From NCBI GenBank assembly GCA_006384855.1, contig VCJN01002954.1, positions 62,001-126,000 of the forward strand: a stretch of DNA of 64,000 nt. Reading direction: 5' to 3'. The translations under genes were made by a program, and so were the position numbers. This stretch comes from Tetraselmis striata. Its lineage: Eukaryota; Chlorophyta; Chlorodendrophyceae; Chlorodendrales; Chlorodendraceae. The notes beneath the pieces were generated by a model, which was not told the DNA's origin, did no database searches, and saw nothing but the letters and a program-made list of their open reading frames with translations. Positions 12,452-21,808 of this stretch are shown here, one piece after another; within the stretch, counting starts at the first letter, position 1; the number at the start of each line of letters is the position of its first letter.

Positions 12452-15220
12452 CTTTACCCGCCCGGAATAAATACGGATCTGGGCCTGGCTCAACCTGTCA
12501 CTGCAGCTGAGCCAGGTGGCAGCCTAGCCCCCGGGGGAGGGATGGCACAAAGAGTTGCTTCCTATTCATATTCAGAGGCGCGGAAAGCTGTAAATAATTA
12601 CACAGCACGAAATCCTGCATTTTCTATACAAGTGGTAACTGTTGATATAGTGCGATAGATCGCTACCCCGCCATTTTAAAGCAGTTGTGTCTACCACCGC
12701 TGCAGCAGTAGATAAATAGCATTACTAGTGCTGTATGATTATGACGACTATGATTTAGTTCATCAAAGTATACTCGTTGATCGGGAATGTGGATATGGTT
12801 CTGGATTTTCCACGCAGGTCGGCATGCGGTATATCGACAGCTCAAAAATGAACGACAGGGAGCGGTGATATATACGCTCTGTATTTTGTTCTGCACGTCC
12901 CAATTTATTATTACTGGCGATGAACAACTCAACCAACTCGAGGCAAAACAGCGGGACGAAGAAAACTGACTGATCTGGCAGTTGCATTGATAATAAATGG
13001 TTCCATCAGGTTCTGCTTGCAGGAGTGCAAGGTGCTTCTGGATCCGGTCTTTGGTTTTATTGATGAATATCGCAATGCATATTTTACTCATCATCTCTAT
13101 ATAGCGCTACTTTGGGACGGGCATCGCGGAGTCTGACTGTCCTCTTTCCCAGCCCCAAGCGCATCTGGGAACCGTTTACCACAGCGTTGGCACCTTCCGC
13201 TTTGCAATGCTGATATGGAAACATCGCTTTTCAGTACTGCATCCATCGCTCTGCAGGCTTCCAGACTGCCCTAAATTGCTCCAATATCCCCCGGATTGCC
13301 AATGGAAGCGGCCTTGCCGGACAGGTAGCGTAGCTTAACATACGAGAGTATTACTAGTAACTCTATATATAGCTATGTGACTGTATATAGCTATATAGCG
13401 CGTTGATTACTTGAGGGTTAGTTAAGTACATACTCAGTCTCTAAAACGTTACCTTACCTCAATATTACTTAAGGAGATGGTTTTTTTTTTTGGGAGGGGG
13501 GGGGGGGGGGGGGGGGGGGGTTATCTCGCGAATGTCGCCGGGGCTGGTATACGTCTTTGATGGTGTGATGGGGCATGTTCCTCTTTGTACACTTCCAGGC
13601 ACCGCTCTTATTGCGGAATAATGCACAACCTTGAAAGACAGGTGCAGATACAAGCGCTCTTCATGGCGCATCACTAATTATCATGGCAGTGGCCTTCTTC
13701 GCTGAAATAAAAGTTGTGATGGTGGTGCCTGGCCGTGTTATGCCACCCTTCTAGCGTTTTCCTATTATGGTTATTATATTATGAACTTCGCTGAAATCAA
13801 CCTTTGCCGCTGGTTGGAGCACATTGCAGCAAGGACACATTGGGTCAATTGCATGTTGAGCTGAGCAAAAATGCCTATGCTAATATCCTTGACGGGAGAA
13901 TAAGATACCATATATGCAATGATGACAGTGGTTCTTTCTTTATAATATCGTCCCAACTGGTTGCGCGTTATATTGGTGGTAGTGGAGAGGAATTTATTAT
14001 GATGTGCAAAGTAAATGATTGGACGATTATCAGAAAAATAACGAAAAGAGATGACAACCACGAATGTGGGGCATGACAGTCTAGAAGCGGGGGTACTCCA
14101 GCTCATGTCTTGGCCCATGAGTCGCCGCCAGGCCTGGCCTCTCCGCACCCTAAAGCCCACCCCGTCTTTAAGTATTGGGCTCTTGTCATCTCGCCGCACC
14201 CGCCCTCGCCCATTTTCAGGGGACGGTGGAGGGTTTCCCGAGTGTTCCAAACTTCCAAAGGGGTCGGCTGCTGAGCGCCGCCGAACACTCGGTTGTATAC
14301 TAAGCCAGGATGCTCTGATCCTCAGGTGGAACATATATGAGTGGAGGGGTACGCCAGATCACGTTCAGGTCGGTCGCGGGTCGTATGTCGTTGTTTTTCG
14401 CCCCCGGGACAGGACTGTTTGCGGGTCGTACAGAGGTACGAAAACACGATTGCATTTCCGAACAGCCCTCGCGAATAGGCTGCTCCCAACCGAGTCGTAA
14501 AGCCCCCCTCTCCACCCGTAGGCGGATCATCTAATCGAAGACGTCGACGCCAGGTCGGAGTCGTACAGGAATATGATGTTCAACAGCCCCCGTACAGGAC
14601 TGCTGCCTGGCGGCGCCAACATGCGATACCGGGACTGCGAGTATTTGTCATTGGAAAAGCCCCCGTAGGGATCCCCACTCGTCGCGAGATCCGTGACAAC
14701 CGGCCACCCCGCCCACCTCCCTACCGCACCCTACCGGGTACGGATCCTAAGGATGATCGCCCACCGCGTGGAGGTGGGGATGGTGCCGCCAGGCCTGCGA
14801 AAATCAGGATCCTTCGCTCCCGGTGGGCTGCTGCCTTGTGGCGGGCGCTTGGTCAGTTGGCCAGGCATTCCTCATGCTAATAGAGCCCCATACAAACCCA
14901 GCCAATCTCCCTCCTAGCGATAGCTGCCGCCCACTATCCCGGCCGGTGCAGCTACCCGTAGGGCGCCTCCGCGGACGCCCCGTCTCCTTCCGCTCATTCG
15001 GTCTTTTTCCATAAGCAGTCATTCACGGGTGATGGGATGCTGAGGTACCTGTAGTACATCTGGATTCAGGAATCAATACACGAAAAATCCACGACCAGCA
15101 TTAATTAATTAAAAGCCGATGAAAGAGGACGAGCAAAACTCGTGGATTCTAAAAGCCCTAGTACGAAACTCCGGGTTTTCCTGCAGTACTTTAGCACTGC
15201 AGTGAAACGCCGGTTTTGAT
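12452..15220. other. Intergenic DNA, no gene recognised
   Basis: The composition drops to lower GC and no open frame shows protein-like features. It holds a T11 run followed by a G25 run (13481-13520). At about 14393-14416 is a copy, in opposite orientation, of the CCCCCGGGACAGGACTG motif also seen near 6200. Around 14340-14720 short GGGTCGTAC-type motifs recur, suggesting decayed repeats. Confidence 0.4.
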
Positions 15221-15332
15221 AGTTTATGGGGTTTCCTTCTTTCACATCTACCGCTTTTCCGGCTACCTTTGCTGCGAAGTGGTACGGGTTACTAGTTCAC
15301 CCTCCGGTGCGCCCTTTTTATTGGTGGCCGAA
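15221..15332 (+). repeat. Diverged solo copy of the A repeat of the split-direct-repeat element
   Basis: GTTTATGGGGTTTCC begins this stretch, followed by ACCGCTTTTC, GCTAC, AGTGGTACGGG, ACTAG and TGCGCCCTTTTT in the same order and spacing as the 177-bp repeats at 16864 and 19761. It is clearly more diverged than they are from each other. It may be a solo remnant or the left end of an older insertion. Confidence 0.65.
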
Positions 15333-16863
15333 CGACGTCTCTCGAGGCGCCCAGCTCATCCTCCCTTAGTATTGCCCAGCCGATTAGAGTTAAGGATTAG
15401 CTTTGGTTCATTTAAACGGCACGCCCAAAACCCTGCTCGGATGTGACGCACACATAATATAGCGTACACACATCCGATGCTTGTCCGGCTCCCTGCTGTC
15501 CTTGACGGAGCAGAGCATCAGGTGCTTCTTGCGAGTACAGTGTGGGTCAGAACTCATCTGCTTTAGTCTACACTGCTCCACCCCCTCCCCTGCGTCCCAA
15601 ATAACTCATAAATAACTTCAGTAATCCGGCTGGGGCAGCCCAGGCAGCCCATGCACCCCGCCGCCGGCAGTTTGCACCGTTGTTGGGCTCTCGGGCGGTC
15701 GGGGGCGCTGCGGTGTTGGCCTACTCCAAGCCAGTGCGTCGTTGCCTTCCGCGGGGGAGAAACGGGGCTCCTGCTGCGTGTGGCGTGTCGTTTGGACTAC
15801 CGCATCTTGTCTGGGCGGTTACGCGTAGTGATGCTCAGCCCTCAAGAATGTCGGCCAATTGTTGCACCTTAGTGCATGCCGCTGCACCGACCGTCTCGGC
15901 CCTCTGCTCCGGCAGCGCGCTGCCGTACTCCGGATGGATGAATAGAGCGTGTGCGCGTGTCGGCGTAATGGCCGGGTTCAAGGCGGTGGATATAGAGTAT
16001 CGCCCTTGACTCGGCGAGCAGCACCTCCCGCCGCCAGAGGTGGTTTACTGACGACTCGCTGACTTGGCCGCCCACTCTCGGCAGTCGGCCTGCCGGTGAG
16101 TCTTTTTGCAAATCAAAATTGGTCGCTAAGCACACTCGCTACATGGTAGTAGCTATATCATACCGGTAATATTGGCGGTATGTGAGCGGAGACCATCACA
16201 GTACGTACGACATATTCTTCTTCTCCCCACCCGCTGTCTCGGTGGACCCGACTACCGTCCTCGGCCCTCTGAATCGCAAGCTCTCCCTCCGCCCACATCC
16301 GGTTGGGGATGGGGACGGGGCTCTTGCACGGGTGGCACGTGCTTGGCAGCCTTGGCCCCGCCCGTGCTGTCACTGCAGCGGAGGAGCAGTGCGAGCTGGA
16401 CACCAGCGTCTTGCTTATGTCGTTGCTGGTCCGGTCAACTCCCCGTTCGCTTTTCGTTTAGCACCCTCCCTCTTCCTGTCCTATCGGCGCCTCCACCTCA
16501 CATTCGGCCTAGTGCCACTATTGGAGTGTCTTGGGATGATGTGTTGGGGAGGGAGTTCTACGTTTAGGGTTTGGCGCGAAGGGGACGCGGCCGAGCTGGC
16601 GGTGGATTTGGCGCTGGGAGGCCCGCGTCATCGGTTGCACGCCCGTGGCGCCCCGTTCTAGGTTGAACCACGACGTCTTCGCTCCTTGTTGCGAGACGTC
16701 TTCGAAGCTCCTTTCTTGTCGGCGCCTCCACCTCACATTCGGCCTAGTGCCGATATTGGAGAGGGCCCGGAATGTGTGCTCGGGAGAGCGTCCCTACTGC
16801 GTAGAGCGGCGGCTCGCGGGTATAGCGATGCTTGGTCGATGGCTGCCATGAATGTTTTAAACT
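15333..16863. other. Region between the solo repeat and the YR element; internal duplication
   Basis: No credible gene is seen. A stretch starting TCGGCGCCTCCACCTCACAT and continuing TCGGCCTAGTGCC occurs at about 16483-16515 and again at about 16718-16750, each time followed by similar ATATTGGAG/CTATTGGAG sequence. This is a local duplication about 235 bp apart, and the stretch may belong to an older relative of the element to its right. Confidence 0.45.
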
Positions 16864-17040
16864 TGTTTATGGGGTTCCCTCCCTTGACCTAACCGCTTTT
16901 CAGCTACAAGTGCTGCTCAGTGGTACGGGAACTAGGCATCTGTTGTTGCGCCCTTTTTTGGGTGCAGCACGAGTAGACATAAAAGGAGCCAGAACAGCTG
17001 AGCCTGCCATCTTCCAGTTTTCGCTGCGTTCCACACAGCG
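16864..17040 (+). repeat. A1 direct repeat of the YR element
   Basis: It starts GTTTATGGGGTTCCCTCCC and ends CGTTCCACACAGCG. It matches 19761-19935 almost base for base, including AGTGGTACGGGAACTAGGCA and the ATAAAAG that could serve as a TATA-like element ahead of ORF1. Confidence 0.92.
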
Positions 17041-17153
17041 ATGTAAAAACTGTCTCGTAACCAGTTGCGAGCAAGGTCACCCCAGGTTGTTCAAGACCAC
17101 ACCCGGCTCGCCACCCGAGTGTGATATTCTCGTCCGTACGTCCGTGCGTTACC

Positions 17154-18003
17154 ATGCCAGATGGAGAAGAACCCGTCGATGAGCCGACGCTGGAGTCGCT
17201 GCAAGCAGATGTGCGGGCGCTGGCTACAGCTGTAGCTCAATTGACGGCTCGTGAGCGCGTTGTTGATGGAGAAGGGGCACATGGCTCCGGCTTCGGGCAG
17301 CGCATCGCGGGACAGCCGATAGGCAGCGGGGAAGCCGCAGAGCGCCCCGACTTGCTAGAGCTAGCCCAAAGCGGCCGTGTCGGAGCAAAATCCGTGAGTG
17401 CCGAGGATGACTACCTCGCGGTGCCAGAACTACTGCAGAGAGCAGAGTCTGGTTACGAGGCCGTTCGACCGGTCAGCCGAGTGCCTGGACTCTTCCCCCT
17501 GAGCACCGACCTAACGAACGAGTACCTCAAGCAAGATGACCGGCGTCTGCCGGCCCATGAGGAGTATTTGTGGATGCCGTGTTTCGGGGCCCACATGGCC
17601 GCGCTTTTCGTGGCTCTCGACGAGCTGCTGCCCTACGTCCCTGCCACCAACCAGGACTTCACACCCTACCTCGCGAGAGCTCGGAACCACGCCGAGGCCA
17701 TCGAAAAGGCGTTTCGGTTTCGTTTGGCCTTCCTGCGGAGGCTAAACGAGATCAAGCGTGTGCACGGTGACCAAGGTGTTCTGGACGTGCTGCGAGCCCA
17801 ACCTTTTCAGCCTGCTTCGGAGCATCTGGGCAATTTTTGGGGACCTCATGAGGGACTACGAGCGCCGTGTCTTCGAGGCGACCGTTGCCGGCAGCGCGAA
17901 AGCGACCGATACTGCTCGAGTGGCGGCTGCAGCTGCAGGTCGCGGCCGTGGGCGAGGACGTGGCCGTGGACGCGGGCGTGGCCGCGAAGGTGAGCACGAG
18001 TGA
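17154..18003 (+). pseudogene. ORF1 of the YR element, gag-like, with one frameshift
   Basis: The ATG at 17154 opens an acidic N-terminus (MPDGEEPVDEPTLESLQAD), a short coiled-coil-like stretch and a helical central region (EEYLWMPCFGAHMAALFVALD and following). The frame is good to about 17830. From there the coding-like sequence continues in the next frame (GDLMRDYERRVFEATVAG), ending in an RG dipeptide array (RGRGRGRGRG) and a TGA at 18001. The shift falls near a TTTTTGGGG run, so it may be a true lesion, a programmed slip or a sequence error. The RG tail suggests nucleic-acid binding, as in Gag proteins. The function is inferred from position and composition only. Confidence 0.55.
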
Positions 18004-18097
18004 CGGTGTGGGGCGCCTTTCGCCGGAGCTGCTGGAGCTTTGCGAGGCCACCTTTCGGTGACCGCCGCAAGACGCACCCTTGCAGCTCAACGGCGAG

Positions 18098-19669
18098 ATG
18101 AGCGCCCTGTGTCAGGACCTGACCCCCCCCACCTTACAAACTTTCTTTAGACCTTCCTCGGTGCGGTGCTTCTCACAGCTACAGCCGAGTGCGGCTCAAC
18201 CATCCGCACACCTGCACATGGCGGCTCAACCAACCGCTTTCTTTACCCCATCTCTGCGTCCGTCGGTTGTTACACTACGTGTTACAACTGGTTCGCAACG
18301 ACCAAGTTTCGCGCGGGTACGTTACGCGCGAGACATGCGCTACGAGCGCGAAGGGCGCGCGGGGCGGCCCTCCTACCTGAACCTAGCCCCGCAAACCCGT
18401 ACCGATGCTACTGCAAACCCGTCCAACAGCTACCGGCCAACCGCCGGGAAGCTAACCGCTATTGCCGAGTACTTTGCGAACAGTAGTCGTACCGGCGGAA
18501 CTCTGTCAGTAAAACGACACACTTACGTGATTGACGAGCCCGAAGCTGTCGCTCCCTGGGCTGCTTCATTGCTATCCCGGCTGCAGGACGCGTTCGGCTC
18601 AGACGAGCTGGGCCAACGGACGCTCGACCTAATCTCCAGCTCCCTCAGCGCTCAGACACTCAAGAGCTACGCCGGCCGGCTGTCTCAGTTCGCGGAGTTC
18701 TGCCACGACTCCGAGAACATCAGCCCACTGGAGGCGAATACGTCTACTGTCGTTCGGTATGTTGCCTGGATCGGCGAGCGGGTGCACATCGCAGCTAAGT
18801 CGTTGCAACCTTACATGTATGCAATCAACACGTTCTTCGAGCTGCACAACCTCGACCCAATCGCCAAGGACAGCCTGCACCTAACTTCAGCGAGGCGTGG
18901 GCTGATGCTGCGTCAGCGCCGACTGGACGCTGCCCCTTTGCGTGTCCCTCTGCTTGCGGATGTAGCTTATCGCTTCGTCACAAAGGCCGAGCTGATTGTG
19001 TCTGCTCCCTACCCGGAGTACCACCATGACTTCCAAGCCCTCCTGGCCTCGGTTGTCAACTTCATGTTCTTTGCCAGGGGCCTTACTGGCGTGTCCTGTC
19101 GAGTGCGAGACGTGCATGTCGACGACTACAACATCACCCTGCAAGTGTACCGAGAGAAGGGTCGCGCTGGTCGACGGGGATCCGACGATTTACGCGTACT
19201 TCTCCTCCCGGCGCCAGTGTCAGAGCACCCCCGAGTGGCACGTCTCCTGCACCACTTCCTCGACCACGTCCAATCAGTCCCCCTGGATACTGTTGGCTTG
19301 GCTGTGTCAAACTTCTGGGCTGTCAGTTCAGATGAGCAGTCAAAACCTTGGACTGCGGCTACAATGTCAGACCGGCTGTCCACAACCGTCCGTCTAGTCA
19401 ACGCTGCCCCCCCTGCTGGCACCTCCTGGACCTCGCACAGTCTTCGCAAGGGCGCAGCCTCTGCAGCGAACGCCATCGGAGTGCCATTGTCCCACATTCG
19501 CTACCAAGGCGGTTGGGCCACTAACTCTGACGTCGTTTTGGACTACATCGACCCCAACGTTCTTCCTTCACCTGGCGAATGGTTCTTCTTTGGACACATC
19601 GCCCCCCTACGCCACTTCCAAGTCCAACAGGACTCCGCAGCGGTGGCCTTCGCAGTGCCTCCTTCATGA
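18098..19669 (+). CDS. Tyrosine recombinase (ORF2 of the split-direct-repeat element)
   Basis: 523 residues from the ATG at 18098, the first in frame after the ORF1 stop; an upstream TTG is unlikely. Residues 1-130 are low-complexity. About residues 170-280 form the SAM-like core-binding domain (SAQTLKSYAGRLSQFAEFC). The catalytic domain follows with Arg327 (FFARGLTG), His447 and Arg450 (HSLRKGAASAA), a GGW motif and the probable nucleophile Tyr483 (DVVLDYID). This R-H-R-Y set is that of phage-integrase-like enzymes in DIRS, Ngaro and Crypton elements. It would insert a circular DNA copy by site-specific recombination. The frame is intact over its full length, in contrast to ORF1, so this copy may be young or under constraint. 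Confidence 0.9.
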   Translation: MSALCQDLTPPTLQTFFRPSSVRCFSQLQPSAAQPSAHLHMAAQPTAFFTPSLRPSVVTLRVTTGSQRPSFARVRYARDMRYEREGRAGRPSYLNLAPQTRTDATANPSNSYRPTAGKLTAIAEYFANSSRTGGTLSVKRHTYVIDEPEAVAPWAASLLSRLQDAFGSDELGQRTLDLISSSLSAQTLKSYAGRLSQFAEFCHDSENISPLEANTSTVVRYVAWIGERVHIAAKSLQPYMYAINTFFELHNLDPIAKDSLHLTSARRGLMLRQRRLDAAPLRVPLLADVAYRFVTKAELIVSAPYPEYHHDFQALLASVVNFMFFARGLTGVSCRVRDVHVDDYNITLQVYREKGRAGRRGSDDLRVLLLPAPVSEHPRVARLLHHFLDHVQSVPLDTVGLAVSNFWAVSSDEQSKPWTAATMSDRLSTTVRLVNAAPPAGTSWTSHSLRKGAASAANAIGVPLSHIRYQGGWATNSDVVLDYIDPNVLPSPGEWFFFGHIAPLRHFQVQQDSAAVAFAVPPS

Positions 19670-19722
19670 CTTGGCGCTACCTCTTCTCCGTCAATCCACC
19701 GCTCTCTGCGTTCGCTCAAGAC

Positions 19723-20054
19723 TGGCAGAACTAGACTCAACTTTGAAATGATCTAAACTAGTTTATGGGGTTTCCTCCCTTGCTCAACCGCTTTTCAGCT
19801 ACAAGTGCTGCTCAGTGGTACGGGAACTAGGCATCTGTTGTTGCGCCCTTTTTTGGGTGCAGCACGAGTAGACATAAAAGCAGCCAGAACAGCTGAGCCT
19901 GCCATCTTCCAGTTTTCGCTGCGTTCCACGCAGCGCCCCCCTGACTCCGTTTTCCCTCCACGTTTTCACTAAACCATCCTGCCAATTTCGGCTCTTGACC
20001 GTGTAAAACAGCCTGCGCGATCTTTTTGGCAAAACCAGACTCAACTTTGAAATG
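19723..20054 (+). repeat. B1 (19723-19750) and B2 (20027-20054) direct repeats flanking A2
   Basis: Both copies have the form TGGCARAACYAGACTCAACTTTGAAATG; they differ at two of 28 positions. B1 lies 54 bases after the recombinase stop codon and B2 marks the right edge of the element. Confidence 0.85.
19761..19935 (+). repeat. A2 direct repeat of the YR element
   Basis: Second copy of the A repeat, lying between B1 and B2. Differences from A1 are few (for example AAAAGCAGCC against AAAAGGAGCC, CACGCAGCG against CACACAGCG). Confidence 0.92.
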
Positions 20055-21808
20055 GCGGTTCCCGCCTCGGGTGATCCGTACCTGGATTTCCTTATTCTGG
20101 ATTTCTGTATGGACTCCTCGAATGTTGTAGCTACCCTGTACCTCGTATAGCGCATGTAATCTCATCAGCCATCACCACAGCATTATTATTGCTGAATAGA
20201 CTAAAGGCAGAAATAAGCGACTAAAGCGACTACCCTGTAAGTGACTAAATCGACTGCATGAGCGCAGGGATATCTGGGTTGTGCTAGATGCAACATTCAA
20301 GAAATCCATACAGAAACCCAGAAGGAAATCCAGCTATGGGCCACCAGAGGCGGGCGGAACCCGGAGCGCCGGGATATCATCCGTCGCGAGAGATATACTA
20401 CTACTCGACAAGTATGAATTCGCCGTCTCATCGTCATCATCGGCAGGCCCAGCAGAGGGTAGACAACGCATATATATTCGTAATTCGGATTTGTGTAGCA
20501 TGTAGCACATTATTGGTCGCTGTTTTTAGTCATTTTTCCGGGGCAAGTAGTCGCTGTTCTACACATTTTTCCATCCCCAAAGATTTCCATACGCCTGGTC
20601 CATCTGACGGCTACAGCGGGCCGTGATCGGATTGCTGGATTGTTGTTGCGTTGCTTTCGTTATCAGTGACGACACATCCGATGGACATGAAGAGGTGCGT
20701 CATGTCAAGCTGGCATGATCTGGCCATCGGCCCTTTGCATGTGCGCCCGCTCGTATCGGTTCAGGGCAACCCATGAACCGACGACGTCATATGTCAGCAT
20801 CAGTACTACACGCACATGGTACACAGTAGATACCTGTACCTGTACTGATATAATTCTGGGGAACTGCCCTTTTTGTAATTCACACCTGTACTGATACCAT
20901 GGAAATGGGGCATCCCAAAGCCGTAAATGTAACGAAACACATTGCAAGTAGGGCATACTACTATGAGATCGTCATATCGAGTATAGCTCATCCGACGACG
21001 GGCCGCCAGGCGGCCGAAGCGACTGCTGACGCATTGCACTGCTTTCGCCCCTAGGCGGAACCTTCCCTCGCCTCACTCACTCAACCCACGCCGTGCGCAG
21101 GAGGGCACACTCACGCTGGGCTCGACTACCCCACCGCGAGCGAGCTCTCCGGTTACGAAAACACACGGGTCGCTGGAAGTCCACCCTGCGATTTTACGCC
21201 TATCCGGCAGCCCCCAAGACAGCGTCCGGCAGCCGCCTGGTTCCTATCGCAGAGCTAAACCGACCTCTGCCCGGACCTAGCTAGCCACCCACATAAAATG
21301 CCACTGCCCAGTACCGTCACCGCAGTGGCGCACCGCGCAACACCTGATGTGGGTACGGCTAACGCCGCCCGGCGCGGCGGAGTCAGTCGCCTATCCGCCG
21401 TGCGCCCGCTGCTGCTGCGCGGCGGCCGGCGTGCTGGGCCGCTGTGGCTGTCGCGCGCTCACAACCGCGGCGCGGGGTCGGCTGTCGCAGGTGAGACCCG
21501 TGCGGCGCCCTAGCAGTCGGCTCGCTCGGTTCAGCAGACTTTTTATGCGCTGAAGTATACACGACCAGTTGTGCGCCGAGCGAGGCGCCCGACGTGTTTG
21601 TTTCGTCGAACAGCCCTAGGGCTTTCCTGACGCGCACGGAAGTGCGCTTCAGCGTGTCAAGGGACGACTTGTGCCGACCAGCTGGGTGTGCCGGGGGATT
21701 CCCAACAGCGGCGGCCGGGCGCGTTTGACCTCCCTCCTGTGCTGCTTAAGACGTATTGTGTACCCACTATGATTCGACTCGATGACGTCTTGGTATACCA
21801 TTGACGTA
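20055..21808. other. Intergenic DNA with a retroelement-tail fragment
   Basis: No gene is recognised. At 20867-20888 the sequence CTGCCCTTTTTGTAATTCAC continues with AC. It is the exact reverse complement of 48730-48751, just beyond the 3' end of the large retroelement, so a short piece of that family lies here in the other orientation. A related TTTGTAATTCACACC is at about 32535. Confidence 0.45.

What the first reader, a model, noticed from the sequence alone, without database searches (positions are those of the whole stretch)
16864..20054. A 3.2-kb split-direct-repeat element with a gag-like ORF and an intact tyrosine recombinase but no reverse transcriptase
The A1-ORFs-B1-A2-B2 layout is that of PAT/Kangaroo DIRS retrotransposons, whose autonomous members carry RT/RNase H. 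Here both A repeats (about 175 bp) and both B repeats (28 bp, two differences) are well preserved and the recombinase keeps its R-H-R-Y residues, yet the whole space is filled by ORF1 and the recombinase. Known non-autonomous DIRS relatives usually lose their proteins, so retaining recombinase and gag but not RT is unusual. It could be trans-mobilised by a partner supplying RT, or a DNA-only YR transposon that uses split repeats.
Basis: partly seen in the sequence, partly recalled or inferred. Interest (0 to 1): 0.78.

Follow-up and report, generated by a model that had tools for sequence, protein, structure and literature searches.

The report
Polymerase-less capsid-plus-recombinase retroelement in alga
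A green alga's genome carries about a thousand copies of a small jumping element that kept its shell-like protein and its DNA-joining enzyme but lost its own copying enzyme, which it probably borrows from full-length cousins in the same genome.

Summary
Window 16849-20052 is an A1-ORF1-YR-B1-A2-B2 element, in a genome that matches Tetraselmis striata. It is not one damaged copy: two capped searches listed 53 full-length copies (3.16-3.26 kb) without room for RT, and the B1/A2 junction pattern occurs 1,247 times. ORF1 and recombinase (YR) show purifying selection. A1 and A2 share variants within copies, as LTRs do, though only moderately. Four empty sites show precise insertion without target duplication. 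RT-RNase H-Dam-YR elements in the same genome (L084, L085) carry homologous YRs (35% identity, E 1e-73), B repeats of the same pattern (TGGCAAA...AAA|TGRTC) and the same UGA-CGG Gag stop followed by a stem-loop. Best reading: an RT-less derivative of a PAT-type DIRS lineage that kept Gag and YR and borrows RT in trans. The UGA-CGG/stem-loop resembles a type II recoding signal and could yield a Gag-YR fusion; coding evidence behind the stop is weak, so that step is inferred. New variant of a known kind. No RNA, cDNA or protein evidence was available, and most of the copies were not examined.

The parts
16849..20052 (+). whole inserted element (3,204 bp)
   Evidence: empty site in L018: CCA^TGGCGG against CCA|TGAATGTTTTAAAC...TTTGAAA|TGGCGG
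16853..17040 (+). A1 repeat (about 188 nt); 16849-16852 is an extra TGAA that resembles part of a B/A junction
17154..18003 (+). ORF1, Gag-like, RG-rich tail, stop TGA at 18001-18003; frame changes near 17830 in this copy
   Evidence: weak profile match to Gag of RT-bearing relatives
18001..18006 (+). UGA-CGG: Gag stop with the next codon of the type II recoding context
   Evidence: TGACGG in 50 of 54 aligned copies, TGATGG in 3, CGACGG in 1; TGACGGTG in 9 of 10 RT-bearing stretches
18010..18107 (+). extended RNA stem-loop beginning about 6-9 nt after the UGA
   Evidence: most extreme of 206 scanned fold windows, z -4.7; basal stem covaries between RT-less and RT-bearing families
18123..18130 (+). 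C-run of variable length between stem-loop and YR; its length decides whether YR is in frame with ORF1
   Evidence: in frame in 24 of 34 copies; this copy has 8 C and is out of frame
18218..19669 (+). tyrosine recombinase (from first conserved ATG; the open frame starts at 18062)
19723..19748 (+). B1 repeat, ending GAAA at the junction
19749..19935 (+). A2 repeat, starting TGATC directly after B1
20027..20052 (+). B2 repeat, right end of the element

Best explanation
The element is a non-autonomous member of a PAT-type DIRS (tyrosine-recombinase retrotransposon) lineage of Tetraselmis striata. It has lost RT, RNase H and the Dam-like domain but keeps a Gag-like ORF1, its own YR, split direct repeats and the Gag-stop recoding signal. 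Proposed cycle: transcription from A1; RNA bound by its own Gag; reverse transcription in trans by RT from a resident RT-bearing DIRS element; ends restored from the internal B1-A2 stretch so that a B2|A1 junction (GAAA|TGATC) is rebuilt in a circle; the element's own YR inserts the circle between two target bases without duplication. Supported by sequence here: layout, copy number, selection on both proteins, sharing of variants between A1 and A2, precise insertion, descent of the YR from RT-bearing DIRS-type elements. Inferred: RNA intermediate, trans-acting RT, circle, and synthesis of a Gag-YR fusion by recoding at UGA-CGG.
For:: 28 + 25 = 53 distinct full-length copies, 3,162-3,261 bases (40 and 39 candidates scored of 3,190 and 3,096); 1,247 B1/A2 junctions; 20 of 20 sampled belong to this family, 18 with more than 100 aa of YR upstream. 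(32 copies): variants shared by >=3 copies fall on third codon positions (ORF1 29 of 49, YR 57 of 100), private ones nearly evenly (85 of 220, 140 of 384), Fisher P 0.010 and 0.00025; noncoding flanks show no such pattern. (28 of 30 copies): A1-A2 differences 6.1 within against 8.6 between copies, permutation P 5e-5; five segregating sites carry the minor base in both A repeats in 10, 10, 10, 8 and 9 copies against one repeat only in 3, 4, 3, 0 and 0; clean empty sites for four copies (L001, L010, L014, L021). YR homologous to YRs of RT-RNase H-Dam-YR elements of the same genome (L084 35% over 445 aa, E 1e-73; P0157 34%, E 6e-33). L084 has identical A1/A2 (177 nt), B1/B2 97% and an 849-aa RT frame found at 10 places; its B repeat and junction follow the same pattern; shared UGA-CGG plus stem-loop.
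Against: No transcript, cDNA, circle or protein was seen. The A1/A2 effect is moderate: a copy's own A2 is the (tied) nearest for only 12 of 28 copies, so later mutation or gene conversion contributes. ORF1 is only weakly similar to the Gags of the RT-bearing relatives (hhalign probability 16%) and not to those of L041 and L042. The closest RT-bearing relatives are distant, so no donor of RT is identified.
Confidence: 0.75

Rival explanations
1. DNA-only YR transposon: the former retrotransposon now moves as an excised or copied DNA circle, without reverse transcription, and the split repeats are a relic or serve circle formation.
For: No RT in any copy examined; YR kept under selection; precise insertion without duplication is also what a crypton-like YR would give.
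Against: Variants and rare changes are shared by A1 and A2 of one copy, which needs a copying step that rebuilds both from one template; ORF1, of no evident use to a DNA circle, is also under selection; RT-bearing relatives with the same layout exist.
Confidence: 0.12
2. Dead-passenger derivative: an internal deletion of an RT-bearing element amplified in trans, in which ORF1 and YR are not used.
For: In many copies the frames are broken; further deletion derivatives without YR exist (L071, L073).
Against: Third-position excess among shared variants in both ORFs; catalytic residues kept in 31-33 of 34 copies. Post-insertion decay explains the broken frames.
Confidence: 0.08
3. YR is made by re-initiation or internal initiation at the ATG 18218, and the UGA-CGG/stem-loop is a vestige of Gag-Pol recoding or has another role, such as packaging.
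For: ATG kept in 32 of 34 copies; the C-run breaks the ORF1-YR frame in 10 of 34; no coding signal between C-run and ATG in any frame; in the RT-bearing relatives the next ORF lies in the +1 frame, not in frame.
Against: Stem-loop and UGA-CGG are kept although RT is gone; in the commonest form (7 C) YR is in frame with ORF1; weak in-frame coding signal directly after the UGA (16 of 30 synonymous against 10.3 expected, P 0.02 for alleles in >=3 rows; P 0.06 for >=2; P 0.30 for all).
Confidence: 0.5

Closest known systems
PAT-type DIRS retrotransposons (Pat1, Toc3; PAT-like families of Chlamydomonas and Volvox) and, in this genome, L041, L042, L084, L085
   Same: A1 ... B1-A2-B2 split direct repeats, YR, no target duplication, Gag-like ORF first; YR and B repeats homologous or of the same pattern in L084/L085
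   Different: no RT, RNase H or Dam domain; 3.2 kb instead of 4.9 kb (L084) or 6.8 kb (L041)
Crypton / TEC DNA elements (YR only; PMC4157794, passages seen)
   Same: YR without RT
   Different: has a second conserved ORF, split direct repeats, and a YR that descends from RT-bearing elements; YR not compared with Crypton sequences
TOC1 and other non-autonomous DIRS (recalled)
   Same: split direct repeats, mobilised in trans
   Different: those are recalled as lacking coding capacity; this one keeps two selected proteins
TR-GAG and similar LTR elements that keep gag but lack pol (search listing only)
   Same: capsid gene kept, polymerase borrowed
   Different: LTR/DDE elements; here the integrating enzyme is kept as well
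Type II stop-codon readthrough signals (PMC3542737, passages seen)
   Same: UGA-CGG followed by an extended stem-loop starting around 8 nt downstream
   Different: known in the cited cases from RNA viruses; here in a cellular retroelement, product not shown

Membership tests
DIRS, PAT type | tyrosine recombinase related to those of RT-bearing DIRS elements | tested here: met
   homologous to L084 and P0157 YRs; no BLASTP similarity to L041/L042 YRs
DIRS, PAT type | split direct repeats A1 ... B1-A2-B2 | tested here: met
DIRS, PAT type | reverse transcriptase and RNase H | tested here: not met
   53 full-length copies without room. Hence filed only as a non-autonomous relative
DIRS, PAT type | Dam-like methyltransferase domain | tested here: not met
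DIRS, PAT type | insertion without target-site duplication | tested here: met
   4 copies clean; 2 further copies (L016, L017) with diverged empty sites not interpretable
DIRS, PAT type | Gag protein | tested here: inconclusive
   position and RG-rich tail fit; hhalign E 0.0016, probability 16%; structure model uninformative, pLDDT 41
DIRS, PAT type | RNA/cDNA intermediate | not testable with these tools
   only indirect support from A1/A2 sharing
Crypton | YR as only conserved protein and no split repeats | tested here: not met
Crypton | YR groups with Crypton YRs | not tested
   no Crypton reference sequences could be fetched
type II stop-codon recoding | UGA followed by CGG | tested here: met
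   50 of 54 copies, 9 of 10 RT-bearing stretches
type II stop-codon recoding | extended stem-loop starting about 8 nt downstream | tested here: met
   in the roughly 70%-identity RT-bearing grade z is only -0.5 to -1.8
type II stop-codon recoding | coding sequence continues in frame after the stop | tested here: inconclusive
type II stop-codon recoding | extended protein product | not testable with these tools
   no proteome or ribosome data

The most novel reading that the evidence does not exclude
The family has given up reverse transcription altogether and replicates as a Gag-associated DNA circle through its own recombinase, a retrotransposon turned DNA transposon that still rebuilds its split repeats.
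Probability: 0.1. Interest if true: 0.85.

Novelty: new variant of a known kind. Interest (0 to 1): 0.62.

Why it matters
If right, this is a polymerase parasite that brings its own coat-like protein and its own integrating enzyme and borrows only the copying step, in contrast to known non-autonomous elements that give up their proteins or integrate with borrowed enzymes. It separates the RT and YR steps of DIRS replication by natural experiment, so the question of what each must recognise becomes testable in one organism that also holds the likely helpers. The conserved UGA-CGG/stem-loop at the Gag stop of both RT-less and RT-bearing elements gives a concrete hypothesis for how DIRS elements express their second ORF. 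It also warns that hundreds of annotated Tetraselmis gene models are pieces of this element.

Tried and rejected
Chance repeats: rejected (controls of 0). Single internal deletion of an RT-bearing parent: no near-identical parent found. P0085, first thought an RT-bearing relative, is a gene model joining a Gypsy-type RT exon to this element; P0129 joins this element to a neighbouring DIRS RT. RVT_1 search of the genome was swamped by one LTR-like family. Dam search: top hits led to L041 and L042; one of the weak hits, fetched as L063, proved to be a Gypsy element, so the 122 matches are not a count of DIRS elements. Intron between ORF1 and YR: donor- and acceptor-like motifs are visible, but the phases that I worked out by hand do not join the frames; JGI gene models splice there differently. 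ORF1 structure model: low confidence. Rfam: nothing above threshold. Solo A ends sampled (L032, L033, L034) are truncated, interrupted or tail-to-tail copies of this family. Literature: searches (open-licence PMC only) listed no RT-less Gag+YR DIRS element that I recognised; passages were read in five papers, no paper was read whole.
Full report
Host. The window lies in G000:C2384:62001-126000, a 224-Mb assembly of 2,903 contigs. Proteins of this element match gene models of Tetraselmis striata (eukprot jgi/Tetstr1; 119 of the 120 listed of 343 hits), and one such model, P0158, matches the genome at 100% over residues 1-391, so the host is almost certainly that green alga.

The element. The YR ends with HSLRKGAA...GGW...DYI, the C-terminal pattern that also matches Cre weakly. 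Catalytic residues are kept in 31-33 of 34 copies.

A family, not an accident. With the window element as query, 28 of the 47 listed matches are full-length copies (3,171-3,253 bases, 91-100% identity, the window's own copy included; 40 candidates scored of 3,190). With a diverged copy as query, 25 further full-length places appear (3,162-3,261 bases, 81-100%, the query itself included; 39 scored of 3,096). Among the split matches of these two calls the widest gap I saw between two pieces of one copy was 764 bases, and one fetched copy has about 0.8 kb inserted in ORF1 (L031): too little for RT. In the first 100 places listed for the A-end pattern, 24 same-strand neighbours are 2,869-3,025 bases apart, one pair 3,703 (L031), one 2,012 and one 8,812 (the last two not examined). 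The B1/A2 junction pattern has 1,247 hits, control 0; 20 sampled hits are all this family. Two of them (L071, L073) lack the YR and share a 558-bp body at 95.5%. These are samples; most of the copies were not looked at.

Selection. In 32 copies, variants present in at least three copies are concentrated on third codon positions in ORF1 (11/9/29) and YR (28/15/57), while variants private to one copy are spread (76/59/85 and 135/109/140); Fisher P 0.010 and 0.00025; 5' and 3' noncoding parts show no pattern. The family has therefore needed both proteins while it spread, and individual copies decayed after insertion.

Copying mechanism. A1 and A2 of one copy differ at 6.1 of 188 columns on average against 8.6 between copies (28 of 30 copies; permutation P 5e-5). 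At five segregating sites the minor base is in both repeats of a copy in 10, 10, 10, 8 and 9 copies and in one only in 3, 4, 3, 0 and 0. Against this, a copy's own A2 is the nearest, ties included, in only 12 of 28. B1 and B2 are identical in 13 of 20 copies in which both were found by pattern. This is the LTR-like behaviour expected if both repeats are rebuilt from one template, as in DIRS models (recalled); gene conversion could imitate it.

Insertion. Flanks of six copies match unoccupied relatives among held sequences. Four are clean: L010 in an L042-type DIRS element (GATA^TACG), L014 (ATT^CGTC, in L002 and L027), the window copy (CCA^TGGCGG, in L018) and L021 (AGATCT^TCCG, in L011). L016 and L017 have diverged sites and cannot be read. 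No duplication or loss is seen. Of 27 copies with an intact TTTGAAA end the next base is T in 18 and C in 9. The joined ends would read GAAA|TGATC, which is the internal B1/A2 junction. The window copy has an extra TGAA at its left end, as if a piece of that junction had been inserted.

RT-bearing relatives. The genome holds several DIRS families with RT. L041 (6.8 kb) has A copies 100% and B copies 100% identical, Gag 700 aa and an RT-RNase H-Dam frame of 1,331 aa. L042 has split repeats and a 696-aa RT frame; 20 of the 122 matches have a 696-aa frame. Their YRs show no BLASTP similarity to the window's. A third group, found through P0157/P0158, does: RT (RVT_1 E 1.9e-14 in P0158), RNase H- and Dam-like parts and a YR homologous to the window's. 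L084 is an intact-looking member: A1/A2 177 nt 100%, B1/B2 30 nt 97%, Gag 355 aa, RT frame 849 aa, YR 35% identical over 445 aa, E 1e-73; 10 of the listed matches have the same 849-aa frame. L085 is a decayed member of another grade (YR pieces 27-41%). B repeats read TGGCAAAACCAGACTCAACTTTGAAA (ours), TGGCAAACAGTGCCTCCTTGGGTAAA (L084) and TGGCAAACGCGGCCCCACAATGGTCAAA (L085), each followed by TGRTC at the junction. ORF1 aligns weakly with the Gags of L084 and L085 (hhalign E 0.0016, probability 16%). The 112 hits (all listed) are Tetraselmis models; in the listed parts one protein each, P0001 and P0253, comes from a metagenome, both from a 5,779-base contig, probably the same one, with a YR and an ORF1 piece.

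Recoding signal. The ORF1 stop and next codon are TGACGG in 50, TGATGG in 3 and CGACGG in 1 of 54 aligned copies. Nine of ten RT-bearing stretches (L084, L085, L086-L091, L093; none found in L092) have TGACGGTG at the Gag stop. A stem-loop of about 100 nt follows: z -4.7 and the best of 206 windows in the element; z is -4.1 (ours), -3.8 (L084), -4.7 (L085), -4.4 (L086), but only -0.5 to -1.8 in the other six. Within the family 34 pairs are mostly kept, with one double-sided change (47 rows of 54 given); between families 6 of 16 predicted pairs have double-sided changes that keep pairing (10 sequences chosen). PMC3542737 (passages seen) defines type II readthrough as UGA followed by CGG or CUA, often with an extended stem-loop about 8 nt downstream. 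In the RT-bearing relatives the RT lies in the +1 frame directly after the UGA (SDGVARRADSC...), so there the signal may serve +1 frameshifting, readthrough followed by another step, or re-initiation. In the RT-less family YR is in the Gag frame in 24 of 34 copies, decided by a C-run. The stretch between UGA and C-run has a weak in-frame coding signal (P 0.02, 0.06 or 0.30 by allele cut-off) and the stretch after the C-run none. I put the Gag-YR fusion at about 0.45.

Conclusion. The window element belongs to a large, RT-less but protein-retaining branch of a PAT-type DIRS lineage. Trans-supply of RT by the resident relatives is the simplest account (0.75). What is new is the combination: Gag and YR kept under selection, polymerase lost, over a thousand junctions, and a UGA-CGG/stem-loop signal shared with RT-bearing relatives. 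The papers seen (PMC4157794, PMC3266345, PMC12477816, PMC8226300: passages) divide YR elements into DNA forms with YR only and RNA forms with Gag, RT and YR, and report PAT-like families in chlorophytes.

Noticed in passing
window 20061-20354: Inverted repeat arms of 33 and 39 nt (85%) nested around 151 nt, MITE-like, directly at the right flank of the element.
   Followed up: no
window 16474-16791: 83-nt direct repeat (78%) left of the element; a similar sequence in reverse orientation recurs in the repeats at 1245-2428 of L084, and the window copy's empty site in L018 lies in related sequence.
   Followed up: partly
window 15220-15319: Fragment 76% similar to the A repeat, 1.5 kb upstream of the element.
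   Followed up: no
L071, L073 (and 177 nt of L067): Further derivatives with the same ends but a shared 558-bp body (95.5%) in place of YR.
   Followed up: partly
L034, L031: Two copies tail to tail about 10 nt apart (L034), and a copy abutting the next one head to tail with its B2 missing (L031).
   Followed up: no
L084 3981-7220: An open frame of 1,080 aa in the Gag frame overlaps the 849-aa RT frame and runs into YR; in L085 the frame is closed after about 50 codons, so it is probably chance.
   Followed up: partly
L041 2550-2555: In the L041 family the Gag stop is UGA-CAA and Gag and Pol are in the same frame, another candidate for readthrough.
   Followed up: partly
jgi/Tetstr1 gene models: Hundreds of gene models are pieces of this element, some fused to host or other transposon exons.
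   Followed up: no
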